DNA of 64,000 bases, taken from NCBI GenBank assembly GCA_963920765.1, contig OY987244.1, forward strand, positions 32,371,678 through 32,435,677, in the 5' to 3' direction. Under the pieces are notes generated by a model, which saw nothing but the letters and a program-made list of their open reading frames with translations, did not search any database and was not told the origin of the DNA. Made by a program: the position numbers and the translations under genes. Within the stretch, counting starts at the first letter, position 1, and each line of letters starts with the position of its first letter. Source of the stretch: Ulota crispa. Its lineage: Eukaryota; Streptophyta; Bryopsida; Orthotrichales; Orthotrichaceae. Below are positions 2,020 through 60,463 of this stretch, piece by piece.

Positions 2020-2932
2020 TTAACATTTAAAGGACTAAGCAAAGTTTTCACCAAAAACTCTTCGAAATTGCCATTTTTAGAGCATCAACCAAATTTGAAT
2101 ACAAAAAAAATTTATGCATATGTGACCATAGGCTTTGTAGAAGAATGGTTTTAGAGGATGCGGAAAAAAATTTAGAGTTTTCCATTGTGTGGATTGGAAT
2201 GGTTTGAATATTCAAAAACATCTTGTGAAAAACCGGGCAGATACCCTTCAGAAGGTGAAATTCCTAAGGAAAAAAGGCCATGTGGGTGGTGCTTCTCTAA
2301 ATTCCTTATTCCAACTAAGTAAAGTACATGTGAAAAAAGTTTCAAATCATTTGGAGTTGTATAACATATGGAAAAAAATTAGTAAGTAAAAAGAAGTAGA
2401 GAATGATTTAAAACACTAAATTGATAAGAATTTAATTATGGAAATGAAAAATGCCAATCCCAATGGTCATAATGTTTTCATAAACAATCTTTATACTTTG
2501 GTTTTGCTTTTTTTCCAAAATGTTACAAATTGAGTGAAATAAAGGACTTCAAAGTTTATTTTGGAGTAGAGAATCCATAATTGCCCGCAAACAAAAAATC
2601 CTCACAACTTTCATCTTGTTGATCCAAACGGAATGATTTGAAGCTTCCTACATTCACATAAACCTCCTAAACCAGTTTAAAATTTTGGTTTTTGGAAAAA
2701 GTGATTTTTGAAAATCTGCCTAGGCTGCCCGATGAACATAAAAAACAACATATTAGGTCGTAACTTTTTACTCATAATTCCAAATGTCATAAAATTTAGT
2801 GCATATGAAAGATAAACCTTGTCCCCACATTGTGTTAAAATTTCAGCTTAAAATATGAAAAGCTCCAATCATAGGTACGTGCCCAAAATTACTATGTTTC
2901 TAAAAAAGAGAATCTGGTCCTTTAGGGGTTAA
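2020..2932. mobile_element. TTAA-ended non-autonomous DNA transposon, copy 1 (long subfamily)
   Basis: The left end is TTAACATTTAAAGGACTAAG. The right end, in reverse complement, is TTAACCCCTAAAGGACCAGA. At 913 bp it matches the length of the copies at 47260-48221 and 49943-50866. Its right part resembles the left part of the element at 56934 in inverted orientation. It has no transposase. TTAA on both ends followed by CCCCTA is the arrangement seen in piggyBac and some Sola elements; the class is inferred from the ends only. Confidence 0.75.
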
Positions 2933-3339
2933 GATCCGTTTAGAAACTTTGAAGGGGGCTCTTGGAGGGCTCCAATTTTCCCTTGTATACCAATAGCTTT
3001 TCATACCCTATGACATTGTGACATACCCCATTTGGAATTAAATTGTGATTATCAACATTGGTTCTACGTCATATACTCATAATGACCCTTTACTACAAGT
3101 CAAATTCAATTATTAAATTTAGACAAAATTTTCTTCAATACAAATTCTTTAAAACACAAATTTTGTTCTTAAATCATGTTAGCCAAGTTTTTCAACTATA
3201 CTTTTGCCACTTAGTCACATTTTGTGCATTTATGTCGATCTATTACCTACCTTTTCTATACTTTATCGAACTGGCCGTATGTGCAAGTCTGCTAAAAAGT
3301 CCACATTCAGGATCTGCTTCCAAAATATTCAGAGCCTTT
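2933..3339. other. Intergenic DNA, nothing identified
   Basis: An AT-rich spacer between two repeat elements. A 103-residue open frame spans the boundary into the next MITE and is not credible as a gene. Confidence 0.5.
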
Positions 3340-3598
3340 AACACTATATTCGTTAATTTGGAAAAATAGATGTCCCACTTTGTACTCCACCTTAAACCCA
3401 AAAAGTTACCTTAAACCAGATTCAAAGGTATCAAATTTAGTTTGACTCAATAAGATTTTTTCCTTCGCAAATTTCTCTTCTCAAGAGAGGAAATGTGTAA
3501 ATTTTAGGTGATCATCTAAAACTTTCACCTCAAAATTTGAAAATTCCAAAATGTACCGTTTTTCCCAAATTAACGAATATGGTGTTCTTTGAACTTTG
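3340..3598. repeat. MITE, ATTCGTTAATTTGGG family, copy 3
   Basis: This is the cleanest copy. The left end is AACACTATATTCGTTAATTT, and the right end in reverse complement is AACACCATATTCGTTAATTT. The terminal inverted repeats are at least 25 bp in a 259-bp element. No separate direct target duplication is visible. Confidence 0.8.
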
Positions 3599-4874
3599 AA
3601 GGAGCCTATTGTTAACCATGTGTGCCTCAGTCTCAAATATTATTACAATGGTTTGATTGGTCCTTGAATTGCACTGCTACAATACGTTTAATCTCAAAAT
3701 CATCTTCAATACTGGAGTCAAAATGTCATTTAAGTTCAAGCGATATAGGACAATGAAGCATTAAATAAGGAAAATTTGACCCTGTTGGTGATGGATTTGA
3801 TTGTTCATATGAAAATATTTTGAGTTTTTTATATATTTTGAATGCTTTCCATATGAAACTATTTTCCATGAAACTACAATGCACTCCACTCCTTGGGGGT
3901 GCTGTAAGAGGTAGTAGTAGAAAACTATGTGCATACAAATTATAGGGTGTCTTGAAAAATATTTGAGATAAAAATTATGATTTGGTTTTTGATACTATAG
4001 GGTATAAACAAATCATAGGATGTCTTCAAACTACTGTAAGGAATAGAAAAATAGGTACAATTAGAAAAAATATAGACCTAGGATACCCTTTTTTTATTAT
4101 TAGTTTTGGTCAAAAGTTCTAAATGTTGCTGCCTTGCAAGTGGCATATTCAAAGTGTTCAATAATTTTATAGACTTTCCTAATTTCTACAATAGACGTTG
4201 GCTAGCTTTAGGTGGTTATCATTTGATTTTGGAAATTGGATGTTCTTTCTCTAAGCCCTTTGTTTGTTGTTCTAGTTGTTCAAGGTTTAGGGTCCAACTT
4301 GGGATTTGGGAATTGCTCAGTTTGTTTTTTCCATTGTCTTTGTTTTTTGGCTACTATTCAAAAAGTGTTTCTTGTATTTTATTTTGCATATTTTGAAGAC
4401 ATGTACAGCACCTTGAAGCAAACATATGTACCACATGTTTTTACTAATCAAAAATTTTGCACAATATAAATTATATTTGACAATTTCTTGTTGTGCACCA
4501 CAATTTAGTAAAGCATATTATTTTGCATATTGTGAAGACATGCATGTACTATACATTGAATAAAACAATATAGGTTAAAGTAAATTTAATATCACAAATT
4601 GATCTCTTTATCATTCATATTAATCATGTAAAAAGGACCTAAATCTAAAGTTCAATTTATAGCAATCAATGATATGATACCTTTCTAGTAAATGAGCGAC
4701 ATTGACAATTTTTATGGAAGATACAATAGTAGTATTGAATACACTTTTTTGTTAAGTTATAGGTGAAACTTGAAAATAGTCATTAGTAGGGGGGAAATTT
4801 TTTTTTGAAAGAAATTTAATGTCTAACAACAAAAATCATGCAATTAGAAATCCAACAGCTATAAGGTTCTCAAC
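3599..4874. other. Intergenic DNA with a short diverged direct repeat
   Basis: No gene was found. A phrase beginning TTATTTTGCATATT and continuing with GAAGACATG occurs near 4379 and again near 4518. The hydrophobic open frames at 4106-4469 are T-rich noise. Confidence 0.45.
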
Positions 4875-6013
4875 TTAACGCCTAAAGGATGCTACCTACC
4901 AAAAGAGATGTTGTATTCATATAATGACCATTTAACACTTGAAAGAAATAGCACTATGACAAATGTCAAAAAATCCTTTAAAATCCTAATTGACCAATAG
5001 TGTGACTGTGACTAGGCTTGAAATTCAAAACTCCAATAGAATTCATGTACTACCCAAGTGTCCCATTTGTAAGCAACACAAGAAAGCATATACAAAACAA
5101 TAGCATCCTTAAGTCTCAAATGTCCAAGGGTGCTTTTCTTGTTTTTGAAAGGTGGATTTTAAGTTTTTTTATTTGTCATTGTTGCATCATTATTAAACAT
5201 TAAAACAAAAATTGTAATCATAGGTTCTTGAACTCCAAGGCTTCTAGATAATGCTACCATAAAAAGACTCCTAAAATCTATGAAAATTTTAAGAAATTTT
5301 TGATTGAATGTGGATGAGTATGGGATTTTTTGGTTTTTTTGGAGTCGCCTAAAAATTCTTATGCAAAAATGGCAATTTTTTATACAAAATTGGGAAACAA
5401 CCACTTATCATGATTTAGTGTCTATTGTTTTTACTTCAAAACTAATGATCCCCCTTCCAAATCCATGACCACAATTTCATGCATGAGCTTGCAATGCATT
5501 CGCCAAAGAGTTACCACCTAATACAAAGAATTTTTTTAGCTCCAATTATTGACCCAAAGCCATTATGAATGAAAGAGAATTCAATGGCAAATGACTCCTA
5601 ATTTGTATAACAAAGACATTCCAAATGAAATTAGCTCAAAAGCATATTTGAATTTTGTTAGATGATGAAATTTTAATAGGAAGGGCCCTCATTGCCCAAG
5701 GGAGTGCCAAAGGGAGATTTTTCACTTTGTTCTCAACTTATTACTTGTTTTTTTAATGTGGTAGCTTGTCATAGGCTTTTTAGTGACACTATTCATCACA
5801 CTTTTTGGTGCACAAGAGGTATGCTTGCTATTTAGTTTTAACCAAAAAAATTGGAATAAGGTATGGAGAACATTAAAATCAAGTATTAAAGCTAGCTTTG
5901 GACTGCAATTTCTTTAAAAAGCAAGAAACAAAAATGATCAAATCTATGCTTTCAACAAAGTTTTAAAGTTTATTGAACACCAAAATTTGGTACCTTGGGC
6001 ATTTAGGGGTTAA
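4875..6013. mobile_element. TTAA-ended element, diverged copy 2
   Basis: The left end is TTAACGCCTAAAGGATGC. The right end, in reverse complement, is TTAACCCCTAAATGCCCAAG. At 1139 bp it may contain later insertions. The two ends match each other less well than in other copies, so pairing them is an inference. Confidence 0.5.
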
Positions 6014-7286: not shown

Positions 7287-7299
7287 TGCAGGATAAATA

Positions 7300-9154: not shown

Positions 9155-9870
9155 TTGACCCCTAAGCGCCCAGGCCATTTTCAATGAGAGGTTGGGGAGA
9201 CCTACAACTTTGATGCATTGAAAATAATGGAACACCTACTTAGAGAATGGCTTGCAAATTTTGGGAATAACTGATTGTGGGAGATGGGAGATTATAACAT
9301 TTGATTAAACAATATGTTATGGCAAGATTTCATTTTTTGGCAAGTAGTTGCGTTTCTATAATTTTTACAAATTTCTATAATCCCTTGGTTCATCTCAGTT
9401 TTTGTGAGTAGCAAGATTAGATGTGAATGCACACACTTGCAAATTATTGAAGATTTTATAGCTCTTTATGATAAGTTTTAGGGCTTCAAATTGCTATTGC
9501 ACAAAAAGTGATGACTGACACAATTGGTGAGGCTTGCCACAATAAGGATTTAGAACATGCTTGAACACTTGCCGGCAAATTTCCCACTATCACCACGCAC
9601 ACACAAGGAAGCTTGCAAGGAATATTGACTAGTTGCAATTGCTTATCACCATGCCCCGTATGGTGATTCACCCAATCCAGGCTCTTGAGGCACTTGTACA
9701 ACATTTGACTTGCCTCACCATTACTCCATTTGCATGGGCCACTTGCATACCTTCATAATTATAGTTTATACCAAGATCAAAAACTTAAATCCAATGCCTC
9801 AAACAAGCATCTGAAATCCTTTGAGATCTTATGAGGACACTTTTGGTCCTCTGGGGCGTTCAGGGGTTAA
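9155..9870. mobile_element. TTAA-ended element, GCGCCC subfamily, upstream of the membrane-protein gene
   Basis: The left end is TTGACCCCTAAGCGCCCAGG. The right end, in reverse complement, is TTAACCCCTGAACGCCCCAG. At 716 bp it shares internal sequence with the copy at 46435-47218, for example GAACACCTACTTAGA and ATGGCTTGCAAATTTTGGGA. It ends 143 bp before the ATG of the gene at 10014, so it lies in that gene's promoter or leader. Confidence 0.8.
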
Positions 9871-10013: not shown

Positions 10014-11730
10014 ATGGCACAATTTGCGGGTACCCTCTGGTGCCAAGGCAACCTACAAGGGCTAGTATCATGCGGATTCTTGCGGTCCAAAACGAATGTT
10101 TTATCTACTGTTACTGTCTCTCCCTTTTTTCCACGAGAAGACATGTTGGTGCCTCGCTTTTTTACCGAAGAATCGCCCAGGATGGCTACAACTTATCCGG
10201 CAGTTGTGAGCTATAGAGACGACGATGCCCCCTTACCGGAGTACTTGGTGGAGAAGAACTGGAGTGACATGAGCGCTCGCACCAGTTTAGAGATACGGTA
10301 CAGTCCATGGGCCGTGGAGATGATGAATGGGTATGGAAGAAAAAACGAGAAAGAAATCAAAGAGACCACAGGTATGTGTCATTTTTTAAAGTGTAGAATG
10401 TTTTCGTCTCCGTGTATTCATGTCTCAAAATCCTCTAGCATCTTGAGGATACAGTACCTACTTTCGGGTTAGCATGTTGAATGTGCCGTTCAAAATAAGT
10501 GGTGCAGTTTTTCTGGTTTGTACTTTCTAGATGTATTAGTAGTGCTGCACTAAAGTCCTCCTGATTATGCAGGAGGTCCTCCTAATAATGGCAAGGGCGG
10601 TGATGGTGGAGATGGTAACGGTGGTGGTGGAGGAGACGACGACGATGAAGACCATATATTTTTGTTGCCAATACTCACACTCGCATTCGCAGCTTTCCAT
10701 GTGGGGTACTGCATTGCTGTGTGGGTGAAGGACGATAGTCTGGACTTCGAATTCTTCCGCTCAGCTCTTGCACTTTTTGGCCTCCTTACAATTTCAGCTC
10801 TCCGTCTCAATGCGTAAGTCCTCCCTCCAGCTGATAAAATATTTCTTTGCTCTGTTTTGTTCCAAGTTAACCCCTGAGCGCCCCCTGAGCGCCCCCTGAG
10901 CGCCCAGGCCATATTTACTCAGATCCATACCCTTGTGTACTTAGTTCAATAAAAGTATTATCTAAGTAGAATCAAATAGTTTGAATTTTTTTTGAGTGGT
11001 AGTAGACACATGTCTAAAAGTACATGAAAAAGTACAAGATCTTTTACTTTACCATTAAGAAGAGGATAAAAGTCAAACATGGACATTTTTCAAAACTGAG
11101 CGCCCCATTTTGAGGTCCTGGGGCGCTCGGGGTTAAACCCCAAAGCAGTCACTGAACAAACTTATAAAATATCTCCTTTTATGGTTGCTTGACCATTCCA
11201 TATCTGAACATGGTTATTTTCACATGCAGACGGACCGGTATAGATGCCTACATTCTTGGGCTTGGAGCATCTGTGGGCGTTATGGTCTGGACAGGTATGC
11301 AATGGGTCCAAAACTTATCTGCTCTCTCTCTATTTGGTCAATTATCTGGAGCATACTATTTGCAACGTGCTGTTACTGAGAATTCGCGATTATGTGGCAA
11401 CATGGACTAGGGTATCACAAAAGCCCCTATTTACTAATTGTCGACTGTCTTAGTGCTATTTCAATTAGTTGATGACTTAGTACATGAAAGTACTATTTTG
11501 GTGCTATTTCAATCATAGATTTTGGTCCATTTTGGTGCTTTTTCAGATTGTGGTCTTGACCACACTGAACAGGATCTGGTTCTGATTTCCTCATTGCATT
11601 GTATTCTTGTTATTTTGGAGCAGGGGAACGTTGTCTTGTGAAACGTGAAGGAAGTCCAGCGGGTGTGGTGGTTCTTTTTGCAGCTTGCATGGCTGTAATG
11701 TTCACAGCCGCTCTCTACCATACAATTTGA
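10014..11730 (+). CDS. Four-exon gene, predicted plastid-targeted membrane protein, 256 residues
   Basis: I do not recognise the family. The exons are 10014-10371, 10573-10813, 11230-11294 and 11624-11730. All junctions are GT-AG (donors GTATGT, GTAAGT and GTATGC; acceptors ATGCAG, ATGCAG and GAGCAG). The frame is kept across every junction and closes at TGA 11728-11730, giving 257 codons. The ATG is the first after an in-frame TGA at 9948. The N-terminus (MAQFAGTLWCQG, rich in S, T, R and K up to about residue 50) resembles a chloroplast transit peptide. Residues 120-147 form a glycine-rich then acidic loop (GGDGGDGNGGGGGDDDDED). Four hydrophobic segments follow at about 148-171, 183-199, 206-221 and 234-252, and the protein ends in YHTI. 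It is probably a small plastid membrane protein. A TTAA transposon sits in intron 2 and another lies immediately upstream. The gene structure is strong; the function is unknown. Confidence 0.8.
10867..11136. mobile_element. TTAA-ended element inside intron 2
   Basis: The left end is TTAACCCCTGAGCGCCCC and the right end, in reverse complement, is TTAACCCCGAGCGCCCCAGG. It is 270 bp and lies wholly within the intron at 10814-11229. The left terminus carries three tandem copies of a 10-bp unit, CCCCTGAGCG. The element makes up most of this intron. Confidence 0.85.
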
Positions 11731-17588: not shown

Positions 17589-18460
17589 TGGGGGGACAAA
17601 AAGATTGGGAACACCATGTTAGACCATTCAAAGATCTGTGCCTAACATACAGAATACAATTGATATTTTGTTGTCTTGCATCATTGGTATTGAGTTCTTA
17701 TGCAACCCCCAATCAAGCATACCAAATTTCAGCTCCTAAAAATCAAGACTCTATTTTTGGTGAATTATTTTATACAAAATTCACGGTTTTACATGATAAT
17801 TAATTAAAAAATATTGGTGATGAATTTTTGAGATTGGATTGCATGGGGATGTAAGAAACATCCATACACACATCTTTTCTTCCAACAAGCATCTCCAAAA
17901 AGCTACAAAATTTCTTCTATAGAGGTTTTAATGTTGGGATGATTATGACCAAATTTTGTAAAATAGATATAATCAAATTTTAATAAGATTTTGGCAAATA
18001 AACATATTTTCATGCTCAAAGTTACAAATTTAGTCATAATGGACAAGTCAAATTGCAAAATCTGATTACCATACAATTATATCTATTTTACAAAATTTAG
18101 TGATTATCATCCTAACATTAAAACCTCTATGAAATAAATTTTGTAGCTTTTTGGAGATGCTTTTTGGAAGAAAAGATGTGTGTATGGATGTTTCTTACAT
18201 CCCCATGCAATCCAATCTCAAAAATTCACCACCAATATTTTTTAATTAATTATCATGTAAAACCGTGAATTTTGTATAAAATAATTCACCAAAAATAGAG
18301 TCTTGATTTTTAGGAGCTGAAATTTGGTATGCTTGATTGGGGGTTGCATAAGAACTCAATACCAATGATGCAAGACAACAAAATATCAATTGTATTATGT
18401 ATGTTAGGCACAGATCTTTGAATGGCCTAACAGGGTGTTCCCAATCTTTTTGTCCCCCCA
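17589..18460. mobile_element. Foldback transposon, copy F1, arms about 375 bp
   Basis: Both ends read TGGGGGGACAAAAAGATTGG inward, and the two arms are reverse complements over about 375 bp around a loop near 18000. Each arm carries a phrase common to the family, CAATCAAGCATACCAAATTT. The same open frame therefore appears in both arms on opposite strands. Length 872 bp, no transposase, no clear target duplication. Confidence 0.85.
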
Positions 18461-18468
18461 CTAGACAG

Positions 18469-19799
18469 TGCCCTTGCATATCTTTCCACCCACCCTATTC
18501 TACCATTACAAGAACTTACCATTTTGTAAAGTACAATTGGCATTTTTGTATTTTGTATCATTTGCCTATAATTCTTACACAATCCCAATCAAGTATACCA
18601 AATTTTGAGTTCCAAAAGTCAAAACCATGTGTTTGGTGACATATTTTAGATAAAATTCATGGTTTTACTTGATAATTGATTTAAAAACATTAGTGATGCA
18701 TTTTTGAGATTTGATTGCATGGATATGTAGGAATCATCCATATGCACATCTTTTCTTCCAAAAAGAATCTCCAAAAAGTTTCAAATTCTTTCTACAAAGA
18801 TTTTAGTGTTAGGCCAATCATGACCAAATTTAGTATAATACTAGTATACAAGCACACGCTTTGCGTGAGTTGGACATGTATGAGTAATGCAACATTCAAC
18901 TTTCTAGAATTGAATCTGTTTGTCTAGAATGTACTTTACAAAAAAGCAATATCTCACAATTGGTTCAAAATCTAACTATGATGTACAGTCATTTTGGTGT
19001 TGTTTTTAAACCAAAAATAGCAATTGTCTTCATCACAATGCTATTCTTTAATACTTTGCTAGGGGAAATTGGTGTTTTGTTGATTTTCTAACACATGATT
19101 GTAGGGCGTTTGGTGTTTTATATTTGGAGCATCTTTTTTGTTTCAACTTCCACCAAAAAGATTTAGAAGATTTTGGAAAAGGACTTGGTTGGGGGGCTCT
19201 TGGTGTTCTATATTTAAGGAGTCCTTTGTTGCTTCAACTTACACCAAAAAGTTCTATAAGGTTTTAGAAAAGGGCACGGAGTCCAAATCCTCCCACTTAG
19301 TAGTATAGATGTATCTCCATTTTTAATTATTTTTTGGAAAAATGAATGTATTATCATGCTCAAAGGTATACAATTAGTCACAATGTATGAGTCAAATATT
19401 AAAATCTAATTACCATATGTAGATATATATTATACTAAATTTGGTCATGATTGGCCTAACACTAAAATCTTTGTAGAAAGAATTTGAAACTTTTTGGAGA
19501 TTCTTTTTGGAAGAAAAGATGTGCATATGGATGATTCCTACATATCCATGCAATCAAATCTCAAAAATGCATCACTAATGTTTTTAAATCAATTATCAAG
19601 TAAAACCATGAATTTTATCTAAAATATGTCACCAAACACATGGTTTTGACTTTTGGAACTCAAAATTTGGTACACTTGATTGGGATTGTGTAAGAATTAT
19701 AGGCAAATGATACAAAATACAAAAACGCCAATTGTACTTTACAAAATGGTAAGTTCTTGTAATGGTAGAATAGGGTGGGTGTAAAGATATGCAAGGGCA
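18469..19799. mobile_element. Foldback transposon, copy F2, interrupted by a Helitron
   Basis: Both ends read TGCCCTTGCATATCTTT inward. The arms pair from 18469-18840 and 19311-19799. Removing the 469-bp Helitron leaves 862 bp, close to F1 at 872 bp. It lies only 8 bp from F1. Confidence 0.85.
18841..19309 (-). mobile_element. Non-autonomous Helitron, 469 bp
   Basis: On the minus strand it starts TCTATACTACTAAGTGGGAG and ends with the stem CACGC-AAA-GCGTG, a short spacer, then CTAG. It sits between A (18840) and T (19310) with no target duplication. These are the four hallmarks of plant Helitrons: 5' TC, 3' hairpin, CTRR end, A/T insertion. The interior has two diverged copies of an approximately 80-bp segment containing CACCAAAAAG. 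No Rep/helicase is present. Confidence 0.9.
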
Positions 19800-20650
19800 T
19801 TCTAATGTACAATACCAAGAAGTATTGTTGTATAGGCCCACTTTTGGCATTCCAAAGAAGTTTGTATAATAAAGAACATAAATGACATTTTATTCTCATA
19901 TTCTTGGTATCCAATCATTATGTAATCCCAATCAAGCATACCAAAATTTGGTTACCAAAATCAAAAATCCTATTTTTAGTGATTTATTTTCATTAAAATT
20001 CATGGTTTTACATGATAATTGATTGAAAAAAGTAGTAATGAATTCTTGAGATTTGATTCCATGGATATGTAGGACAAATCTATATGCACAACTTCCATGC
20101 TAAAGAACATCCCCTTAAGTAACAAAAATTTGATCTACAAAAGATTCAATGAAACTTATGATAGGCCCAAATTTTGTAGAATATATATATTTTTTCTATG
20201 AGTATAAAATTTTGTTGCTTGACTCCAATATTTTCACTGAGTTTGTTTCTCTAAGCATAATGTTTTGTTTCCTTGATGAAAAGCTAGTTTAAAATAAAAA
20301 TATATATTTCACAAAATTTAACTCTATCACAAGTTTCATTGAATCCTTTGTAGGTCAAATTTTTGTTACTTAAAGGGATGTTTTTTTAGCATGGAAGATG
20401 TGTGTATGGATGTGTCCTACATATCCATGCAATCAAATCTCAAAAATATATTGCCAATTTTTTTTAATCAATTATCAAGTAAAACCATGAATTTTATCTA
20501 AAATAATTCACCAAAAACATGGTTTTGACATTTGGAACTCAAATTTGGCATACTTGATTGGGATTGCACAAGGATGCAATGATTTTTTTGACAAAAACAT
20601 ACCAATTATACTCCACGTTTCACCAAAGAAACTAAATGGCTAATATAGGT
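19800..20650. mobile_element. Foldback transposon, copy F3, ends uncertain
   Basis: The arms pair between about 19920-20170 and 20330-20590 and carry the shared phrases CAATCAAGCATACCAAAA and AAAACCATGAATTTTA (reverse complemented in one arm). The outermost ends could not be matched confidently. Confidence 0.6.
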
Positions 20651-21029: not shown

Positions 21030-21179
21030 TTAACCCTTGAACAGCCCTTAAGAGCTAAGCTACGGGATTGTATTTTTGGAAAATACCCTTGCAATTGAAT
21101 TGCTAAGCAATGCGTTTTGTTAGATCAGTATACAGTGGACATACGGCCACAAAGGGCGTTTGGGACGTTTAAGGGTTAA
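21030..21179. mobile_element. Short TTAA-ended element, 150 bp
   Basis: The left end is TTAACCCTTGAACAGCCC and the right end, in reverse complement, is TTAACCCTTAAACGTCCC. It is the smallest copy in the window and a probable deletion derivative. Confidence 0.65.
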
Positions 21180-22395
21180 GTTTAAAACAAACGTTAAGAG
21201 GATTCTCACCATTCATAGATTCCAATGCTTGAGTAACCATGATGTTTCCTATTAGAAAAGTACATAACATGATTGTGAAATGATCTTTAGTAAAAACCAC
21301 AATTTATTCACACATTCAAGGCACATGCATTGGAATATATGTCTAGCATTGAAAAAAATAACGATTTTTTGATACATCCTAAGAGCTTAGGCACTCAACG
21401 TGTCTTTTCTAAGCTTACAAAGATATTAGAAAAAGGATCTTAAAACAAAAATTCTGATTGGATAAAGGGTCATGTAGATTCTATTGAGAAGTGAGTTCAA
21501 ATCATATACTAGTAATAAAACTCAAGTAGTATCAAGACTTTTGAATGAGTCAAGAAGAAGTCTTTTAAGGCAAGGAAATGACCTTTGTCCAATATTGTGC
21601 ATACTACAGCAAAACAACTCTATCAAAGGCAACTCTATCAAAGGCTTGTAACCAAAGGTAATTTAATTCTCAATTTCTAAAAAGAGTCAAATAGAACACA
21701 ATCAACAAGAAAAGGTTGCTCTCAAGTCAATAATATAACAACAAACAACAATTTAAGAATTCATAAGCTTCTTAGAGCAATGTTTAGGGAGAGTAGGTTG
21801 AGGGAAGTAGAGCAAAGCTTGGACTTGGCAATTTCTCCAAGAGAATATGGACCTTATTTGTGCCCATCCCAAGAACAAAACAAGCCAATGTTTAGTTAGT
21901 GAGAACACACAAGATATCTTCAACCCATAATACATGTTATAGCTTTCACAAAGAGAAAATAATCAAACAAAGCAATTTGCTACAAAATAACCACTCAAAA
22001 AAATAGAACACCTGTGTAGCATTAGAAAATAAGATTGTGACAAAGCCATGACTGTGAGATCCCCACTAGAGAGTCAATTCCATCAAAAGAGAAAACACCA
22101 GTACATACGCTGTGCTTGGGTCTTTGAGTAACTGTCGAAGCAGGTTGCTCAAAAAATTGTTGTAATAATTGTCTCAGCTAAACTGAGGAAAAATTTGAGA
22201 GAGCAAAGAGAAGAGCAAAGACTAAACTCATGAGGTGAGATTGAAATCAGTCTAAGTGAGAAGGCAGGTAAGCCAATATCATGGCCTGGGGAAAAAATAT
22301 ATATTAAATTCCCACTATCTAGGACTCTGGGAGGTCTAGTTAAGCCTTAATTTGGTCATAAGTGTTATAGATCCGCTGCTATCTTAGTAATGCAA
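21180..22395. other. Intergenic DNA, nothing identified
   Basis: Mostly AT-rich, with a short tandem GGCAACTCTATCAAA near 21615-21645. No gene was recognised. Confidence 0.4.
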
Positions 22396-26221: not shown

Positions 26222-26448
26222 TGCACATTCACTTCAAAGAAACAAAAAATCTGGTTGGAAGGTATTTACATCATAGATTTGGAAGTGACAAGCAAAAAAG
26301 TATGGTACACTAACATTTGCTAATCTTAGAATAAAGCATTCAATATTCCCGCTTAATGATACAAAAGAAACTTTGTCCACAAGCTAAGAACTTGATTTTG
26401 TTTGATCATCTCTACCCAAAAGCAATATGTAGGATATAATTGCACCAT

Positions 26449-31842: not shown

Positions 31843-32092
31843 TTAACCCTTGAGCGAGCAATCCCAAATTCATGCCGTGTTGGACCTCATTGCAAACAAT
31901 CTGGTGCCGCAAGTTCAAAAACAATATCTAGAAGAGTTAGCCATTGATACTGCACAAGGCTTAGGGTCTGCAAATGTATGAAAAATTTGGTAAGCATTCA
32001 TTCCACGGATCATAAGGTTATGACGGTCAAAGTTAACAAATTGTTGAATATGGAAAGGCTAGATTTGGGGAATTGGGGCGCTCAAGAGTTAA
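31843..32092. mobile_element. TTAA-ended element, GCGCCC subfamily, 250 bp
   Basis: The left end is TTAACCCTTGAGCGAGCA and the right end, in reverse complement, is TTAACTCTTGAGCGCCCC. Confidence 0.7.
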
Positions 32093-39491: not shown

Positions 39492-40038
39492 CTGCAATAT
39501 CCACCACAAACATGAGCACTCGATTAAATATTCCTTCGGTCAATAATGAGCACAAGGTTCTGCCCTTATAATAATCTCTCAAATCAAAATCGAGATCGAG
39601 CAATCGAATTCGTGATCGTAGCCGTAACACGTAGGTTTCTGAAGGAACTAAAGAATCACCAGCGTAAAATCATGAATTAGACAAGTCAAGCATGAAACAA
39701 CAAAGAACAAGAAAATCATTTGTAATAATTCCACTGAATAGAAGTGTCCCTCCAACAGTAGCTCTCACGTACTAGAATTGCCATCACCTCTCTCAACATG
39801 TACGTGACTGATTTCGGCTGCAACTACATATAACATATCTACTATCTGCACAAAGGGCCGGGATTAGTGAACTCGCTACTTGAGCCAGCAGGACGCTTGG
39901 GCCCGACCTTAAAACCAACTTAGCCTCAAAATGCGCACGAAAGACGACGTTACGATCTAGCATTCTATAACGTCGACAGTCAAAATCGAGTGTTCCTCGT
40001 GATCATCTGCTCTTGATGTACAGGGAATTACAGGGAGT
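39492..40038. other. Spacer between the two TPD1-like exons
   Basis: No exon with a suitable phase-1 donor was found on the minus strand. The open frame that continues from exon A up to 39630 crosses the splice acceptor and is not protein-like. Confidence 0.4.
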
Positions 40039-46434: not shown

Positions 46435-47218
46435 TTATCCCTTGAGCATCCAGGTTAATTTCACCAAATTCAAGGTTTTTGGAGACCAACAACTTTGATG
46501 CATTTATCTCAATCAATGGGATTATTCATAAAAAGTGATCATTGAAAATAGTGGAACACCTACTTAGAAAATGGCTTGCAAATTTTGGGAACAACTGATC
46601 ATGGGAGATGGGAGATTATAACATTTGATCACACAACATGTGATGACAAAATCTCTTTTTTTGGTAGGTAGTTGCTATTTGATAATTTTTACAAAATTCT
46701 ATAAGCCCCTGATTCATCTTAAATTTTATGAGTAGCAAGATCAAATTTGAATGCACAAATTTATAAATTATTGAATATTGCACTTTTTTTTATGTCAAGT
46801 TTTAGGGCTTCAAGTGGCTATTGCAGTGAAAACAATGACTGGCACAGTCAATGACAGTTGCCATAACAAGGGTCTAGAACATGCTTGAACCCTTGCCAAC
46901 AACTTTTTCACTACCACAAAGCTTACTCAAGGAAGCTTGCAAGGAATATTGACCAGTTGCAGCCTGTAAAACACTGCTTGCCACCACGCCCTTGTCACCT
47001 CCTACGGTGTTTCACCCAATCAAATATCTTGCAAAACTTGTACAACATATGGCTTTCCTCGCCATTACTCCATTGGCATGGATAACTTGAATGCTTTAAT
47101 AATTGTAATTTATAGCAAGATCAAAAAGTTAGATCCACTGCCTCAAAATAAGGCTTTAAAACAAGGCTTTAAAATCATAGGAGGCGATATATGAGGGGCT
47201 CGGGCGCTCAAGGGTTAA
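46435..47218. mobile_element. TTAA-ended element, GCGCCC subfamily, 784 bp
   Basis: The left end is TTATCCCTTGAGCATCCAGG and the right end, in reverse complement, is TTAACCCTTGAGCGCCCGAG. It is colinear with the copy at 9155-9870 (shared GAACACCTACTTAGA and GGGAGATGGGAGATTATAAC). Confidence 0.8.
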
Positions 47219-47259: not shown

Positions 47260-48221
47260 TTAACCCCTAAAGGACCAAGGGTGTTTTTTGAGAAAAGATC
47301 TCAGAAACTACCAACTTTTAGTGCATTGTCTAAAATTGAAATTAAAAACCTTTTTTCTCAATTTCAATTGTACAAAAGTGTGCAAAACATATAAAATAAT
47401 ATGTGCAAAAAAATTCAGCCCATTTGACCATGTGGATTGTAAGATTATAATGTTTGAAGTGAGAAAAACTACTTTTCTTTGTTCCTACAAAACAAGGTCA
47501 GCAGACTTTGACCCTTCCTAGATTAAATTTTTTGCTTTACACAAATTTGAGCTTTTTGACCATTCACAAGCATATGATGTTAGGTTCACTCACAAAAAAT
47601 TTCAAATGCAAAAATAGAATCTAGCTTGTTCAAAATCATCCTCCAATGCAAGGAGGTTTAGTGAATTAGCAATGCATTAGTCATTCTTTCATGATTTCTT
47701 GTGCAATGAGGAAGTTTTTTATTTGAAATCTGAATGGTGGAAAATTAGAGACAAACATTTGAAACATACAAAAAAAAGTTTGAAGAGCTTTGAATTTATA
47801 TATAGAAAGATAACTTGGGTTGAAGTTAGAGGATTTTTTTTTCTTGAAACTGCCCAAACATAGTTAACAAAGTTTGACTCCCTTCAAAATGTGATCTAAG
47901 AGCTCTATTTTTTATTTATTTTTTGCAATTGTACACCATTTTTTTTTTTAGTAACATGCTTGCCAAATTTCAAATGTTGATGAAAGTTTTAGCATAAGAT
48001 TCTCCAAAGATGCCCAAATTGCCCAAATTGCCCAATTTCTTTGGGCAACATAACATTTGAACTAGGCATCTAGTTGGGGAAAAAATTACATTCCCACTTA
48101 GGGAATACTTATCTCCACCTTGTGTAACAATTTTGAGAACATCTAATAAAATTAACTCCATATGACCCTACCGGAGTTCTCAAGTGGCTGTTGAACAGCC
48201 ACTTGGTCCTTTAGGGGTTAA
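47260..48221. mobile_element. TTAA-ended element, long subfamily, 962 bp
   Basis: Both ends read TTAACCCCTAAAGGACCAAG inward, a perfect 20-bp match. This is the best-preserved pair of ends in the window. No transposase. It lies 41 bp from the preceding TTAA element. Confidence 0.9.
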
Positions 48222-49942: not shown

Positions 49943-50866
49943 TTAACCCCTAAAATTCTTTTGTGTTTAGAAGCCCAAAAGTGTTCCAGAATACTAGTCC
50001 CCAAACCACGGTCAAAATCTTCATTGAAACTTACTTTTTAACAAATCCAACTATAGGATCCTTTAGTTGACTTGCACAAGTACATTGTCCCAAAATTTTA
50101 GAATGAATGTCCTCACCAATTACAAGATCAATGTGCCTAAACCTTAAAATGTAGGCTTTTCTAGTCCTTCCAAAAGGTGAAGTTTTGTTTTTCAAACTTT
50201 TTAGAAAAAAACATATATGTTGTATTTCTTGTGCAATTTTTGCAATATGTTGGAAAATGGGTTGAAAGCATATATAAAAAGATTTAACCAAAAAAATTGG
50301 ATTCATTTTTACAAAAATTGTAAAGTGAAAGGTATTGATGAATGAAAGATATAACTAATATGCTAAGAAGTTTTGGAAGGATTTGAAATTTTTTAATTCC
50401 AATGGTGAGAATGCTCTAACAAACAATTAGAAACTTTATTTTTCATTTTCATTTGAAAGTTTTCAAAATTGAGAGTAAAAGATAACTTTATATGTTTTTT
50501 CTACCCTCTTCCTACCTTCATTGCCTGCAAAAGAAAACTCCTTTTAACTCTTACCTCATCATTTGGAATTGAGTGATTCAATATTTTTTAAGTAGGTATC
50601 AATCTATACAATTCTATTAAAAATAATAATAATAATAATAATTTAGAATATATTTTTTGCTACTCGGTTTGACATTGAAATTGAAAAAACCGTCTAACTT
50701 TTGCATTACTTATTGGAATGACATGAAATGAAGCTTCACATGTAGATTATGATGAGTAGCATCCATCCTAAAAATTTCATGGACTTTTTTCAAATTATGA
50801 AGTCAATAGAGCATGCTTGAGTTCTCATAAAGCCCAAAGTGGGCTCCTTGGTCCTTTAGGGGTTAA
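49943..50866. mobile_element. TTAA-ended element, long subfamily, 924 bp
   Basis: The left end is TTAACCCCTAAAATTCTTTT and the right end, in reverse complement, is TTAACCCCTAAAGGACCAAG. It contains an (AAT)n run near 50623-50642. Confidence 0.75.
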
Positions 50867-50906: not shown

Positions 50907-51641
50907 GGGTAGTTGCAAGAAACACTTGCTAGTTTTGTCTCAAACAACCTTAAAAAGCCTTAGTACGTGTAGTACTATGAGCTTTTGGAATATTTTTTTA
51001 AATAAAATAAAATATGGATAATTTGTAAAGCACTTAAACAAGCACACTTGTGAAAATTCAAACCTAGAAAAAAAATTCTAAAAGTTATGCACAAAATTAG
51101 AGAGACCAAAAACACCAAGAAAAAGGACATTTTGTTTTTTGCTTTTTTGAAAATAGTAAAAAAATTCAAAAAAAAACTAAAATATGGCCATTTTTCTTAA
51201 CTTGAAGGTGCTCCTTTTCCATCAAATCAATTTTTGGAGAAAAACAAATTTTGTTATGTGCACTTGCGCAAAAGTAGTGCACTTTGAGCACATGTAGAAG
51301 GTGGATATTTTACTATATTTGAAAAATCTTTTGCAAAATTGTGTAACTTTAGTACAAGAACTTGTTTGTGAATTTTGGCCTTCAAATTTGCATTTCAGGG
51401 TCAAAAATAGTACTCAAAACCCCCAAAATAGCCAAAGTAGACACCTAATTGGGGGCTATTCAAAAGTAGCAAATTAATTTTATAAATATTCAAAAAATCA
51501 GTAAATATTTGTGACTATTATACGTACCTTCAATTCAAATTTCAATAAGAGAAAATTTATCACGCAAAAGTTATAGCCCAAAAACCACTCACCAAAGACC
51601 AAGGGGACAAAAAATAGTGCAAGTGTTTCTTGCAATCACCC
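50907..51641. mobile_element. DNA transposon, GGGTRATTGCAAGAAA family, copy 2
   Basis: The left end is GGGTAGTTGCAAGAAACACT and the right end, in reverse complement, is GGGTGATTGCAAGAAACACT. It is 735 bp and runs opposite to the copy at 34440-35165, sharing the phrase GTACTATGAGCTTTTGGA. Flanks ATA and ATA could be a 3-bp duplication, as in PIF/Harbinger. Confidence 0.75.
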
Positions 51642-52398: not shown

Positions 52399-53290
52399 CA
52401 CTAAGGTAGGTATATCCATTCCCGATCATTGAACCTAATGCCGCTCATATGTACATAAGACGTACAGTCAGGTTCATTAATCTTACAAATTGCCTTATTG
52501 AGGCATTTAGTTTTTTCAATGAAACATGGAGTATAATTGGTATATTCTTGTTAGAAAGATCACTATTGCATTTTTATGCAATCCCAATCAAGCATACCAA
52601 ATATCAATTTCAAAAAAGCAAAACTTCATTTGTGGTGAAATTTTTGAAGTAAAATTTTACAATTTTACATGGTATTTAATTAAGAGATTTTAGTGACAGA
52701 GGGACAATGTCTGAATTTTGTAAAAATTGATATTTCTTTGTTATAATTAGATTTTTTTAATTTTCACCTCACATGGTATCTAATTTTTTACATTTGAGCA
52801 TGATGGTACAATTAATTTGCCAAAATCTAATTAACTTATATAAGGGAAATTATTGTCCAAAGTTTAGGCATTGTCCTTTTGACATTGAAAAAAATCTCTA
52901 TGGAAAGCATTGTGAAACTTTTTTGGGTATGCTTGTTGAAGAGAAGATGCACGTATGGATGTTCTCTACACATCTCCTTAATCAATTAAAAATAATTATT
53001 CACCAATTATTTTTAATTAAATACCATGTAAAACTGTGAAATTTCACTTCAAAAATTCACCACAAATGAAGTTTTGCTTCTTTGAAATTGATATTTGGTA
53101 TACTTGATTAGGATTGCACAAGGATGCAATGGTCATTTTTCCAAACAATAATGTACCTATTTATACTCCATGTTTCATTGAAAAAAATTGAATGTCTCAA
53201 GAATGCAATTTGTAAGATTAATGGACGCAACTAGACATATGAGCAACATTAGGTTCAATGATCAAGAATGGCTATACCTACCTTTAGTGA
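52399..53290. mobile_element. Foldback transposon, copy F5, 892 bp
   Basis: Arms pair from CACTAAGGTAGGTATATCC at the left to its complement CACTAAAGGTAGGTATAGCC at the right. Shared inner phrases are GATCATTGAACCTAATG and CAATCAAGCATACCAAATAT. Confidence 0.8.
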
Positions 53291-53394
53291 TGTAAGAAAA
53301 CTAAGTCATAGAAAATAGTATAATTTTAATTTTGATTTTTTTAAATCTTTTCATACAAATGGAATTTGACAGTAACAAGCAAAAACATAATTCA

Positions 53395-53660
53395 GTTGTG
53401 GAGACCACAGCCTCCACAGCCTCAGGAGTTGGTTACACTGGGTAGGAGCTCCAATTTCCACTGCACAATTGCTTCCAGAAGCCTTCCTTCCAAGGACATT
53501 GATCGCCTGCTTTGATAATTCACCACATGCAAGGGGCGATCATGAGCTATGACCAGAGTCCAGAGCCCATAGTAGACTTTACTTGCTCCACCATGGGTTC
53601 TCTTCAACCATTGTCTGCAACACACACCGCAAACGCTAAGTAACTTAGTACTGCAGTGGA
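53395..53660 (-). pseudogene. Unrecognised GC-richer segment, possible gene fragment
   Basis: It stands out in base composition between two foldback elements (F5 and F6). A 67-residue minus-strand open frame (53625-53422) includes KVYYGLWTLVIAHD and LLEAIVQWKL. There is a loose resemblance to a cystatin core, too weak to call. It could be a captured or relic exon. Confidence 0.25.
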
Positions 53661-53720
53661 CAAACTCAATCCCTATAGCTTACACAAAAATTGACTTCCA
53701 CGAACACTAACATAATTGTA

Positions 53721-54614
53721 CTTGTACAGTGCCTTCAAGAAAGTCTTGCAACCCCTTTGGGAAGCCTTGCAAAATTTCTCATTTATTTCCATTGTAAAAG
53801 TGATTCTATAAAACTATCCTGTCAAATGTATTGCTTTTTAGAACCTTCACCAACATATGAAATTTCAATGTTTAAAAATAAAAACTTTATTTTTGGCAAA
53901 TTATTTTATTTTATTTTCTTGACTTCACATAAAAATTAATTGAAAAATATGTGTGATGATTTTTTAACATTTGATTGCACAAATATATAGGAAATGTCAT
54001 TGCTCACATCTTTTGTTTTACAAAAATGCACACTATGTAGGTAGAATTTTCCTCTATGTGGCTATAAAGCTTATAATTTGTTTTCCAATTTTCTTTCATA
54101 AAAAATTAAGGCTAAAGAAGTCAAACTCATGTTATAGTAAGCTTCTACATTTCTATAGCTTTCTAATGATACCTTATTTGACTATGTTTGTTCAAGTTCT
54201 AACCTACTATAACATGAGTTTGATTTCCATAGCCTCAAATTTGTATGAAAGAAAATTAGAAAACACATTATAGCCACATAGAGGAAAATTCTACCTACAT
54301 AGTGTGCATCTTTGTAAAACAAAAGATGTGAGCAATGACATTTCCTATATATTTGTGCAATGAAATGTTAAAAAATCATCACACATATTTTTCAATTAAT
54401 TTTTATGTGAAGCTAAGAAAATAAAACAAAATAATTCACCAAAAATAAAGTTTTTATTTTTAGACATTGAAATTTCATATATTGGTGAAGGTTCTATAAA
54501 CCAATACATTTGATAGGATGGTTTTATAAAATCACTTTTACAATGGAAATAAATGAGAAATTTTACAAGGCTTCCCAAAGGGATTGCAAGACTTTCTTGA
54601 GGGCATTGTACAAG
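53721..54614. mobile_element. Foldback transposon, copy F6, 894 bp
   Basis: Arms of about 370 bp pair from CTTGTACAGTGCCTTCAAGA to the complement CTTGTACAATGCCCTCAAGA. Because the arms are mirrored, the same hydrophobic open frame appears once on each strand. Confidence 0.85.
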
Positions 54615-56933: not shown

Positions 56934-57309
56934 TTAACCCCTAAAGGACCATTGTCCCTTCAGGGAACATGTTGGACTTTGGGCATGTACCTATGGCTAA
57001 ACTACTTTGTGTGATTTCATGAAACTTTTATTGGCAGTGGGGAATTCAAAGATATAGTGAGCATCTATATTTTTCTTCATTTCAACATTTGATGAAGAAT
57101 TTATGCATGAATTTATGAAAATTTGGGGAGGATTGTTGATCCGGGCAGCCCAAAAGATTTCTTTAAAAATTATGTTTTTCTAAAATAAAAATTTGAAATT
57201 GGTTCTTTAGATTTTTTCCTACATGAGAAGCTTTGAATTATTCAATTTTAGTCAATGAGACAAAAGTTATGTGGAGTTTTTGTTTGCGGGCAGTTATGGA
57301 TAATGCGTT

Positions 57310-57532
57310 ATTCATTAATCTAGTAAAAAACTTACATTTTGGGACTTTCAGGAGGCCTCCTGAAATCAAGCTCAATGTTTTTTTGTACACGTGTCCTCAC
57401 TTGAGAGGAGGAATTTGCAAGGAAAAATTCTTAGTGGTTCAAACTAAATTTGATACCTTTGAATCTGGTTTAAGATGACTTTTTGGGTTTAAGGTGGAGT
57501 ACAGAATGGTACCTTCATTTTTACCAATGAAT
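57310..57532. repeat. Nested MITE, ATTCGTTAATTTGGG family, with 8-bp flanking duplication
   Basis: AATGCGTT lies at 57302-57309 and 57533-57540. The ends read ATTCATT on the left and, in reverse complement, ATTCATT on the right. The interior resembles 3340-3598 in reverse (GGTGGAGTACA, GAATCTGGTTTAAG). Confidence 0.75.
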
Positions 57533-57749
57533 AATGCGTTGGATCCTCTACTCTAACATAAACTTTGAAGTCCTTTATTTTACTCAATTTTCAATATTTT
57601 GGAAAAAAAGAAAAACCAAAGGAAGTAGATTGTTTATCACAACATTATAGCAATTGGGATTTGCATTTTTCATTTCAATACATAAATTCTTAAAAATTTA
57701 GTGTTTTGACTCATTCTCAACTTCCTTTTACTTACTATATTTTTCTCAT

Positions 57750-58464
57750 AACACCATATTCTTTAGGGAATTACTAAATTGACACCCTAAATTGCTAACA
57801 GGACACCCCCTTTGAGCATGAAAATTGATAATTTAGTGCTATTTTTGATTTATTAAGTGGTCCATCATTCATTCAATCACAACATTATCATGTTCTTGAA
57901 AGAAAACATGACAAATACAAAAAAATTGAAATATTATTGCACCAATACTATCTTTTGATATATTTTGCTTTAGATAACTCAAAAGTCCTATATTTTTAGT
58001 TTGAAATTCAAGCACACCTTTTTTTTTTAGTATAACCTTAGAATGATAAAAGAGAAACAAATCTTTTGATCCAAATTAAAAAATTAGCAAAATCAACATT
58101 AAAAATCACATTTTCATGCTCAGAGGGGGTGTCCCGTTAGCAATTTAGGGTGTTGCTATAGTAATTCCCTATTCTTTATGATGAGAGAATGAGAACCTCT
58201 CAATAATTATGTTAGATTTTGACCAAAATCATCAATTTCCATCCAAAATCACCAATTTTCATTAAAATGAGAGTTTTCAGCTTGAATTGAGTTGAAATGA
58301 CATAAAATCTTTCAATTATAGGTCAAATTTGAAAGGTTTTGTGTCAATTCAGCTCAATTTGAGCTAAATTGAACTAAAACTTTTTGTCAAGTTGACCTTT
58401 TTTAATTTTGGGTATTTTACCTCTCATTTCACTGGAATACTCTCATTATAACAAATATGGTGTT
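57750..58464. repeat. MITE with AACACCATATT ends, interrupted by a second MITE
   Basis: Once the inner element is removed, the left end reads AACACCATATTCTTTATGAT and the right end in reverse complement reads AACACCATATTTGTTATAAT, then GAGAG. The termini resemble those of the ATTCGTTAATTTGGG family. Confidence 0.7.
57766..58169. mobile_element. Mutator-type MITE, 404 bp, with perfect 9-bp target duplication
   Basis: TATTCTTTA flanks both sides (57757-57765 and 58170-58178). The inverted ends start GGGAATTACTA and extend about 60 bp, through ACACCCTAAATTGCTAAC and GGACACCCCCT. A 9-bp duplication with long inverted ends indicates the Mutator superfamily. It inserted into an existing MITE and is the youngest layer here. 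Confidence 0.9.
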
Positions 58465-58857
58465 TCATGTATTGTATAGTTCCAACTGATTTGAAAATTC
58501 TCCCATGCATACCTAACTTGATCTCCTACATGGAAAAATAAAGTGCAACTTTGGGGAGAGCAATTTTTTTGTTATAAGAGTAGTCAAAGGCTTCTGAAAT
58601 TTTCGGGCAGCATGGAAAAAAACTTTTTTTTTGCTTTAGATGAAACATCTTGTTCCTTTCCATCTAGAATGAGCTGATTTTTTTCCTGTAAGTACCTCTT
58701 CTAGTCTGGGGCATGATCCTATGGTTGGATTTCTCAAAAATAAAACACAAAATCCCTTTTTACTAAACCTCCTAGAAGTGGTAGGTTTTAGTGATTTTCA
58801 CATAAAAAAGGCTTGGTCCTTTAGGAGTTAAGCAACAAAAATAAATGATAAATCTTT

Positions 58858-59398
58858 TTAACCCCTAAACGCCCAAGGGGGTAAGGGCAAAACATAAATG
58901 CATTGAAAAATAATACTCTTGTAACTATAATGAAGTATGTTTCAAAAGAGAAAATAAGAATTATGATATTTAGCAATTATCCATATGGTCAAATATTCAA
59001 AAAAAGCTTTTGTACTCTTATTTAATGACTTTAGAAGCATTTACCATTTAATATTCACCAAAATTACAAATTTTACACATAGATTTCAAAATTTGGTATG
59101 ATTGGTTAAAAATAGACATTCTACTTCAAAAATGCTATCTTTTGAAAGGAGGGAACATCATTAGTTTCCCGAAATAGTAAATTCTACAACAGTAACAAAT
59201 ATTGAAGTGTTTGTCTTTGAAAAATTCTCCTTGGAGGAGTTTAATTTGGATTGACATGATTCAAGTTACGTTGGAAAGTAGACTTGATTTTCAATTATAA
59301 GAAAAAATGTTTTTCTAAAAAATGATTTTTTAATTCTTGGGCAGCCCAAAAAAATAGGCAGCAACCAGAAAATGGTCAATTGGGTGCTTAGGGGTTAA
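58858..59398. mobile_element. TTAA-ended element, 541 bp
   Basis: The left end is TTAACCCCTAAACGCCCAAG and the right end, in reverse complement, is TTAACCCCTAAGCACCCAAT. It begins 26 bp after the previous TTAA element. Confidence 0.8.
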
Positions 59399-59810
59399 GT
59401 ATAATGTACTTTGCATTGGTTGGAACTTGGGGATAACTTGATTGTTAGGTTGTTGTTGCCTTGATCATTGTCTTGTTTTGATGTGCAATGCACATGGTAA
59501 GCAAAATGTGGATCTTTTTGCAGTACTTGTAAGAAGAAAGAAATTGGATATAATGTAATACATTGAAATTTAGATTTCAACAAGACTAATTTTCTCAACT
59601 TAGGAAATCAACTAAGTGAACAAAAATGAAGTGTTATTGGCCAACCAAAAAATACATGTATAGATTATGACCATTAAAAAAAAAAACCAAAAGAGCAAGA
59701 AATGTACCGAGTTTTTTTAAAAACCTCGGCGGCTTGTGGAAACAAAGGTGTACCAAATCCGGCTTAAACGATATTTCATTATTGTTCTTGTTAACACTTA
59801 ATAGCATTCT

Positions 59811-60463
59811 ATAACCCCTAAATGCCCAAGCCCTATCTGAGCTTCTTGAACTTTCCACAAAACTAAACAATCAATCAACCTTTTCAACAATTCCATCAAT
59901 TTTTATACTATTGTAACCATACAAATTTAAACTAAACATGTTAGAGATTACATGGAAAAAGAAAACACAACAATATCACTTATAGTTTGAAAGATTATAA
60001 CGTTTGAACATGAGGGTGTTAAAACTGCAAAAGTGACTTAAAGTCTTCTAATCCTCATTTCACATGTCAAATCTAAAAAGTTGGTCACTAAAAAAATATG
60101 AGGTTTAAGGTCATTACATGTTTAACTCTAATCAATTTACGGTTTTAGAAATCTACTCCTACATTTTTTTTAAATGGATTTCTAATGTGGAATTTTCTCC
60201 AAGTTCTAGTGTATTTGAGGTTCATTTTCAAGATCTTCCAACACTAAAAAACTCAAGATTGCAGTGGACACACTTGTACAAAATCTTAAGTTTAAACATC
60301 ATCAATTTTCATTTTCACAATCAGATTTTTGATGTTGAAAGTAAACTTCAAAACAAACTTATATTGAAAAAAAAATACTGAAAATGATGATTTGATAAGG
60401 TTTTATTCATCTTCAAAGTTTTGTTGTGACCCAAATCTGGTCGCTTGGGCATGTAGGGGTTAA
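59811..60463. mobile_element. TTAA-ended element, 653 bp
   Basis: The left end is ATAACCCCTAAATGCCCAAG and the right end, in reverse complement, is TTAACCCCTACATGCCCAAG. The left TTAA has mutated to ATAA. Confidence 0.8.

What the first reader, a model, noticed from the sequence alone, without database searches (positions are those of the whole stretch)
2020..60463. High-copy family of TTAA-ended DNA elements in a land plant
At least twelve element pairs end in TTAACCCC/T followed by either AAAGGACCAAG or GAGCGCCC-like sequence, read inward from both ends. Sizes run from 150 bp to about 1.1 kb. TTAA at both junctions with CCCT immediately inside is the piggyBac arrangement; Sola3-type elements also use TTAA. 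To my knowledge piggyBac is rarely or never described in land plants. No copy here encodes a transposase, so the class rests on ends alone.
Basis: partly seen in the sequence, partly recalled or inferred. Interest (0 to 1): 0.7.

Follow-up and report, generated by a model that had tools for sequence, protein, structure and literature searches.

The report
piggyBac jumping genes in a plant
The repeated TTAA-ended elements are short, non-coding relatives of piggyBac, a cut-and-paste jumping gene best known from animals; the same plant genome holds thousands of such ends and about a hundred copies, mostly broken, of piggyBac-type transposase genes.

Summary
Twelve element pairs with TTAA + CCC-type ends lie in the window. 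Searched without TTAA, 19 separate ends appear: 15 carry TTAA exactly, 4 differ by one base. The window's own unnamed 275-Mb genome has 3038 exact copies of one 20-nt end, its reversed control 0, and 120 matches to PF13843, the piggyBac transposase domain, best E 1.3e-73. Four of 12 transposase loci examined lie between the same kind of ends; one window element is an internally deleted relative of one of them. Paralogous sites lacking three window elements were found: one exact TTAA, TTAA in 12 of 16 copies, and CTAA. A second mark: right-hand ends carry a palindrome centred on element bp 25 whose letters vary while pairing is kept (51 of 96 pairs, about 25 expected; left ends 26), the position where piggyBac's C-terminal domain binds (PMC7351741). 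The kind is known; host and scale are unusual. Activity was not tested, and the host lineage is not named.

The parts
2020..2932 (.). TTAA element, GGACC-type ends; sits in a high-copy repeat
   Evidence: ends; 16 of 32 listed junction-spanning paralogues fetched: single TTAA in 12, GTAA 2, TTGG 1, TGAA 1
5109..6013 (.). TTAA element, looks like an internal-deletion derivative of an L043-type transposase element
   Evidence: bp 1-589 match L043 1767-2352 (77.5%), bp 614-905 match L043 7223-7512 (60.5%)
9155..9870 (.). TTAA element, GCCC-type ends (left junction now TTGA)
   Evidence: paralogous segment L068 on contig C6 lacks it, single exact TTAA
10867..11136 (.). short TTAA element with tandemly repeated left end
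   Evidence: same C6 segment lacks it; site reads CTAA with a 3-nt gap; inner TIR only 7 of 16
21030..21179 (.). 150-bp TTAA element
   Evidence: 11 of 16 inner TIR bases; no junction-spanning paralogue reported
31843..32092 (.). 250-bp TTAA element
   Evidence: 11 of 16; right-end 49 bp match the left end of transposase element L041 at 77.6%; no junction-spanning paralogue reported
46435..47218 (.). TTAA element, kin of 9155-9870 (left junction TTAT)
   Evidence: 78.6% over 613 bp to 9211-9803; (12 of 16)
47260..48221 (.). TTAA element, perfect 16 of 16 inner TIR
   Evidence: full-length copies at L042 917-1842 (70.8%) and L047 5849-6815 (89.2%)
48185..48201 (-). subterminal palindrome centred on element bp 25, clearest example
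   Evidence: all 8 inner pairs form; statistics
49943..50866 (.). TTAA element, GGACC-type right end, left TIR partly degenerate
   Evidence: 9 of 16; 91% over 623 bp to part of locus L051
56934..58831 (.). TTAA element in reverse orientation to 2020-2932, holding a nested insertion of about 240 bp
58858..59398 (.). TTAA element, GCCC-type ends
   Evidence: 13 of 16
59811..60463 (.). TTAA element (left junction ATAA)
   Evidence: 15 of 16; near full-length relative at L040 8803-9454, 78%
60953..61067 (.). orphan left end, kin of 2020 (junction GTAA), partner not found
   Evidence: 86.9% to 2028-2132

Best explanation
The elements are non-autonomous piggyBac-superfamily transposons (piggyBac MITEs). 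Transposases encoded by larger relatives elsewhere in the same genome recognise the CCC-type terminal repeats, cut the element out, and insert it at TTAA, which ends up at both sides. Elements without a gene arise when the middle of a transposase-bearing copy is lost. Shown here: TTAA target, same kind of ends around transposase genes, piggyBac-type catalytic domain, one-sided palindrome at bp 25, high copy number. Inferred: that the palindrome binds the transposase's C-terminal cysteine-rich domain as in insect piggyBac, hairpin-intermediate cut and paste, seamless excision, and which transposase lineage moves which element.
For: Ends far above chance; 3038 exact 20-nt ends genome-wide, control 0; PF13843 120 matches, best 1.3e-73, none in 14 control genomes; 4 of 12 examined transposase loci bounded by TTAA-CCC inverted ends: L040, L041, L043, L051; 8 of 10 ORFs scanned from these loci hit PF13843 and no other Pfam family, the other two (not transposase frames) hit nothing; PDB matches piggyBac 6x67 (L042 ORF, 1.8e-17) and piggyBat 9c0f (L043 ORF, 1.7e-16), the aspartates at D268, D346 and D447 of piggyBac being kept in the L042 alignment; window 5109-6013 resembles an L043-type element without its middle; empty sites; termini start CC, as in piggyBac, not RR as in Kolobok; the 12 right ends as they lie pair at 51 of 96 positions around element bp 25, 24-26 expected, 0 of 20000 in each of two nulls, left ends 26 of 96, matching piggyBac's palindrome in bp 17-33 centred at about bp 25 (PMC7351741, passages).
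Against: No transposase-encoding copy was found in the window. Clear end pairs were found for only 4 of 12 examined transposase loci; L042 and L047 looked partly paired at first, but those ends belong to nested complete MITEs. Of 19 joined flanks searched (12 outside, 7 window), 15 had no junction-spanning match reported, and 5 window elements were not searched; the search scores only its best candidates. In 14 of 16 fetched paralogues of the L034 site the junction reads TTGG, with TTAA in one (L057) and TTGA in one. The CCCC ends, the majority, depart from the CCYT rule at the fourth base. L041 shows no clear palindrome and, if any, at the wrong end (2 and 4 of 8 pairs); in L037 neither end has it. 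Only 10 of the 120 PF13843 rows are free of stops.
Confidence: 0.95

Rival explanations
1. A Tc1/mariner-like element with a TA duplication that prefers TTAA targets and whose own ends start with A; the letters at the junction would look the same.
For: With target TTAA, a TA duplication plus ends A...T gives the same string, so empty sites alone cannot exclude it; ATAA and GTAA junctions exist.
Against: The outer T is kept in 17 of 19 ends; the transposases found between such ends are PF13843, piggyBac type.
Confidence: 0.02
2. Kolobok or Sola3 elements, other superfamilies that use TTAA.
For: TTAA duplication is shared (Kolobok: PMC9587614, passages; Sola3: recalled).
Against: Kolobok ends are 5'-RR, these are 5'-CC; PF13843 transposases lie between such ends. 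Sola3 end letters and Sola transposases were not tested here.
Confidence: 0.02
3. Helentron-like rolling-circle elements, suggested by the one-sided subterminal palindrome plus inverted ends.
For: One-sided hairpin-like palindrome.
Against: A T|T insertion without duplication (recalled rule) predicts a fixed outer T; the base outside TTAA is mixed. Empty sites have one TTAA where the occupied site has two. The position matches piggyBac's CRD site.
Confidence: 0.01
4. The elements are piggyBac MITEs, but the varying palindrome is not a transposase site; it is an RNA hairpin, for instance a terminator or small-RNA source.
For: Pairing is kept while letters change (17-nt block identity 0.37 between right-type ends, near the 0.31 background).
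Against: Its centre is exactly bp 25, as in piggyBac, and it is absent at the other end; transposase-bearing copies L040, L043 and L051 have it on the 5' side of the gene.
Confidence: 0.15

Closest known systems
piggyBac of Trichoplusia ni (transposase structures 6x67, 6x68)
   Same: TTAA target, CCC-type ends, DDE_Tnp_1_7-like domain with three catalytic aspartates, one end with a palindrome within bp 17-33 centred at about bp 25
   Different: Host is a plant; ends read CCCCTAAAGGACC, CCCCTAAACGCCC or CCCTTGAGCGCCC types; palindrome letters differ between subfamilies; a displaced palindrome at the second end, as piggyBac's right end has, was not found with significance (z 1.9 at nt 57.5)
Coral CMITEs and AmiPB piggyBac elements (PMC2872659, abstract, Results part 1)
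   Same: TTAA-flanked MITEs with CCC-type ends next to piggyBac transposase copies; end letters of the same style (for instance CCCTTTAACGCCC, and CCCCTCAGTGTCCG in family III)
   Different: CMITEs are about 100 bp with a conserved core; window spans are 150-1898 bp and alike mainly at the ends
PiggyBac repeats listed for Ceratopteris richardii (PMC6890710, table passage)
   Same: piggyBac labelled in a land plant
   Different: There 1230 repeatmasked pieces, 0.00% of the assembly; the passages seen give no ends, targets or genes

Membership tests
piggyBac superfamily | TTAA target duplicated on insertion | tested here: met
   empty sites of 9155-9870 (one exact TTAA) and 2020-2932 (TTAA in 12 of 16), 10867-11136 reads CTAA; L034 site TTAA in 1, TTGA in 1, TTGG in 14 of 16; TTAA exact at 15 of 19 ends. 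A TA duplication inside TTAA cannot be told apart by letters alone
piggyBac superfamily | 12-19 bp inverted ends starting CCYT | tested here: inconclusive
   inverted ends met (7 to 16 of 16 inner bases); CCCT starts meet the motif, the commoner CCCC starts differ at base 4, as does coral CMITE family III; rule from PMC10175614 and PMC2872659
piggyBac superfamily | DDE_Tnp_1_7 transposase between the ends | tested here: met
   L040, L041, L043, L051 of 12 loci examined; Pfam; PDB
piggyBac superfamily | C-terminal cysteine-rich zinc domain | tested here: inconclusive
   C-x2-C...C-x2-C...C pattern downstream of the DDE part on the same strand in L041, L043, L045, L047, L049, L051 (6 of 12; a 7th in L044 contains a stop); reading frame not checked
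piggyBac superfamily | asymmetric ends, palindrome in bp 17-33 of one end | tested here: met
   outside the window, 17 complete elements: at the script's threshold of 6 pairs 9 have one such end, none both, 8 neither; at 5 pairs (chosen afterwards) 15 have one end at 5 or more and the other at 4 or fewer
piggyBac superfamily | seamless excision through TTAA hairpins | not testable with these tools
   needs an excision assay
Kolobok | 5'-RR...YY-3' termini with TTAA duplication | tested here: not met
   ends are 5'-CC; rule from PMC9587614
Sola3 | Sola transposase and Sola3 termini | not tested
   no Sola model was run; Bao 2009 not held
Helentron | T|T insertion without target duplication | tested here: not met
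   outer base mixed; one TTAA in empty sites, two in occupied; rule recalled

The most novel reading that the evidence does not exclude
A land-plant lineage hosts a large piggyBac radiation: over three thousand element ends of one exact type alone plus further subfamilies, and about a hundred transposase loci. In it the bp-25 palindrome of one end changes letters by compensatory substitution in step with diverging transposase C-terminal domains, giving a natural series of paired DNA sites and binding domains.
Probability: 0.45. Interest if true: 0.72.

Novelty: new member of a known kind. Interest (0 to 1): 0.6.

Why it matters
A 2022 review of land-plant transposable elements speaks of six TIR superfamilies and does not use the word piggyBac (PMC9033089, passages). 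Here piggyBac is a high-copy component of a plant genome, which bears on how it is distributed and transferred across eukaryotes and on how repeat annotation may miss it. The set of differing palindromes and transposases offers material to test end recognition, and natural plant copies could inform seamless-excision tools in plants.

Tried and rejected
Considered and dropped: Helentron (after seeing a one-sided hairpin), Kolobok, mariner with TA; see rivals. The in-window search for empty sites gave only self matches or short weak hits across a junction. Rfam (gathering threshold) and tRNA scans of the window were empty. The 20-nt end pattern gave 0 matches in viral contigs and 1 in bacterial genomes, about what chance would give by my own estimate. 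A proposed conserved subterminal motif at left ends was not supported: apart from the element it was taken from, scores were within the null. A displaced palindrome at left-type ends near nt 57 had z 1.9 only. Ends first assigned to L042 and L047 were withdrawn because they belong to nested complete MITEs. The 4875 left end was replaced by 5109. I first split ends by the look of the palindrome and then repeated the test on all 12 right ends as they lie, to avoid that selection. In one search locus L031 was left out because its partner end is doubtful (listed). My notebook calls L057 the closest empty paralogue of L034; that holds for the bases next to the junction, not for overall identity (89% against 90% for the best).
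Full report
What is there. The window holds a family of elements with TTAA followed by CCC-type inverted ends. The end consensus matches 22 sites with up to 4 mismatches (one a register shift), against none in 20 shuffles or in the reversed sequence. When only the 16 bases inside TTAA are searched, 19 separate ends are found (22 hits minus three register shifts); 15 have TTAA exactly and 4 have one change. Twelve pairs span 150 to 1898 bp, with no exact flank repeat longer than one base outside TTAA.

Host. An ORF at 39187-39669 (minus strand) matches the TPD1_C (tapetum determinant 1) domain at 1e-31, and a similar stretch lies at 40041-40351. That this domain marks land plants is recalled. 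The window is part of a 34-Mb contig of a 275-Mb assembly without a name. I take it as a land plant on that basis; a further lineage test did not complete by the tool.

Genome-wide. One 20-nt end occurs 3038 times exactly, its backwards control 0 times. PF13843, the piggyBac transposase domain, has 120 matches (116 of 528 candidates scored; a few genes appear as two rows); 10 of the 120 rows have no stop inside, and introns are not regarded. I fetched 12 longer loci around such genes (the four best-scoring, several with few or no stops, and the one nearest the window); four more short loci, L006 to L009, were not examined for ends. Four of the 12 have the gene between inverted TTAA-CCC ends: L040 (12 of 16 inner bases equal), L041 (12), L043 (15) and L051 (11). 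L042 and L047 seemed to qualify in part, but their ends turned out to be those of complete nested MITEs. L049 keeps one clear end. L044, L045, L046, L048 and L050 gave no convincing pair. Window element 5109-6013 matches both end regions of the L043 element (77.5% and 60.5%) and lacks its 4.9-kb middle, where the gene lies. Of 10 ORFs scanned from these loci, 8 hit PF13843 and no other family, and two upstream or unrelated frames hit nothing. Two transposase ORFs (L042, L043) were compared with the PDB; both hit piggyBac and piggyBat transposases and nothing else at E 1.

Empty sites. Joined flanks of 12 outside elements and 7 of the 12 window elements were searched. Junction-spanning matches were reported for one outside element (L034, 41 places) and three window elements (2020, 32 places; 9155 and 10867, one place each); the other 15 had none reported, and the search scores only its best candidates. 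For 2020-2932, the 16 paralogues fetched read TTAA in 12, GTAA in 2, TTGG in 1 and TGAA in 1. For 9155-9870 a duplicated segment on contig C6 has the flanks unbroken around one TTAA. For 10867-11136 the same segment lacks the element, but the site reads CTAA with a 3-nt gap in the alignment. For L034, 14 of 16 fetched paralogues read TTGG, one TTGA, and one TTAA (L057); L057 is not the most similar overall (89% against 90%) but shares the bases next to the junction with the occupied site, so I take its sublineage as the likely target. Another element, L019, sits in what reads as the end TTAA of a further element of this kind.

The palindrome. All 12 right ends taken as they lie pair at 51 of 96 positions around nt 29 from the start of TTAA (element bp 25). 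Shuffles within rows give 24.0 and random window 17-mers 25.9, with 0 of 20000 reaching the observed value in either; left ends give 26 of 96. Taking the best of all tested centres, 0 of 2000 random sets reach the right ends' value. The blocks themselves are only 0.37 identical between right-type ends, near the 0.31 background, while the TIR is 0.68 identical, so pairing is kept while letters change. Outside the window, 17 complete elements were scored with the best of three neighbouring centres: at 6 or more of 8 pairs, 9 have one such end, none both, 8 neither; at 5 or more, a line drawn afterwards (11.4% of random stretches reach it), 15 have one end above and the other at 4 or fewer; L034 and L037 have neither. 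These outside ends come from few subfamilies, so they are not independent. In transposase-bearing L040 (6 and 4 pairs), L043 (6 and 0) and L051 (7 and 0) the better palindrome is on the 5' side of the gene; L049 likewise, but at an end position that I inferred and whose TIR is lost; L041 is unclear (2 and 4, the larger on the other side). In insect piggyBac the left end has a palindrome in bp 17-33 with its axis near bp 25, bound by a dimer of C-terminal cysteine-rich domains (PMC7351741, passages). This match in position supports the superfamily assignment for the gene-less copies too.

How it works. By analogy with piggyBac, the transposase synapses the two unlike ends, cuts, and joins the element at TTAA. 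Shown: ends, target, gene family, asymmetry. Inferred: chemistry, seamless excision, which protein moves which element, present activity.

What is known. Passages seen: six plant TIR superfamilies, without the word piggyBac in the held text, in a 2022 review (PMC9033089); PiggyBac among superfamilies found in all groups studied, land plants included (PMC4438587, Table 2); 1230 PiggyBac pieces in Ceratopteris (PMC6890710). In ten searches of the open library none of the titles and abstract beginnings listed describes a plant piggyBac family; the lists are capped and subscription papers are not held, so this is no proof of absence from print.

Verdict. Confirmed and explained: piggyBac MITEs with their transposase relatives in a plant genome. 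Known kind, unusual host and scale.

Noticed in passing
22384-27564: A 5.2-kb element with 1117-bp inverted arms 99% complementary; ORF 25757-26233 (minus) has no Pfam match. Perhaps Mutator-like, by recall only.
   Followed up: partly
17589-20580, 29203-29993, 52399-54614: A family of large palindromic foldback-like repeats related to each other.
   Followed up: no
57302-57540: A nested insertion of about 240 bp inside 56934-58831 with the letters AACGCATTA near both edges; its kin lies at 3353-3499.
   Followed up: partly
50907-51641 and 34438-35165: Another repeat family with inverted ends, 75-79% alike, next to the right end of 49943-50866.
   Followed up: no
39187-39669 and 40041-40351: Two neighbouring TPD1-like stretches, about 67% alike in DNA.
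   Followed up: partly
61996-63783: Open frames that by eye look like a LINE with a zinc knuckle; the four scanned have no Pfam match at E 1.
   Followed up: no
2020-60463: The palindrome end is the right-hand one in most window elements, 56934-58831 being the exception by kinship to 2020-2932; number too small to call a bias.
   Followed up: no
L019 1501-2436: One element inserted in what reads as the end TTAA of another element of the same kind.
   Followed up: partly
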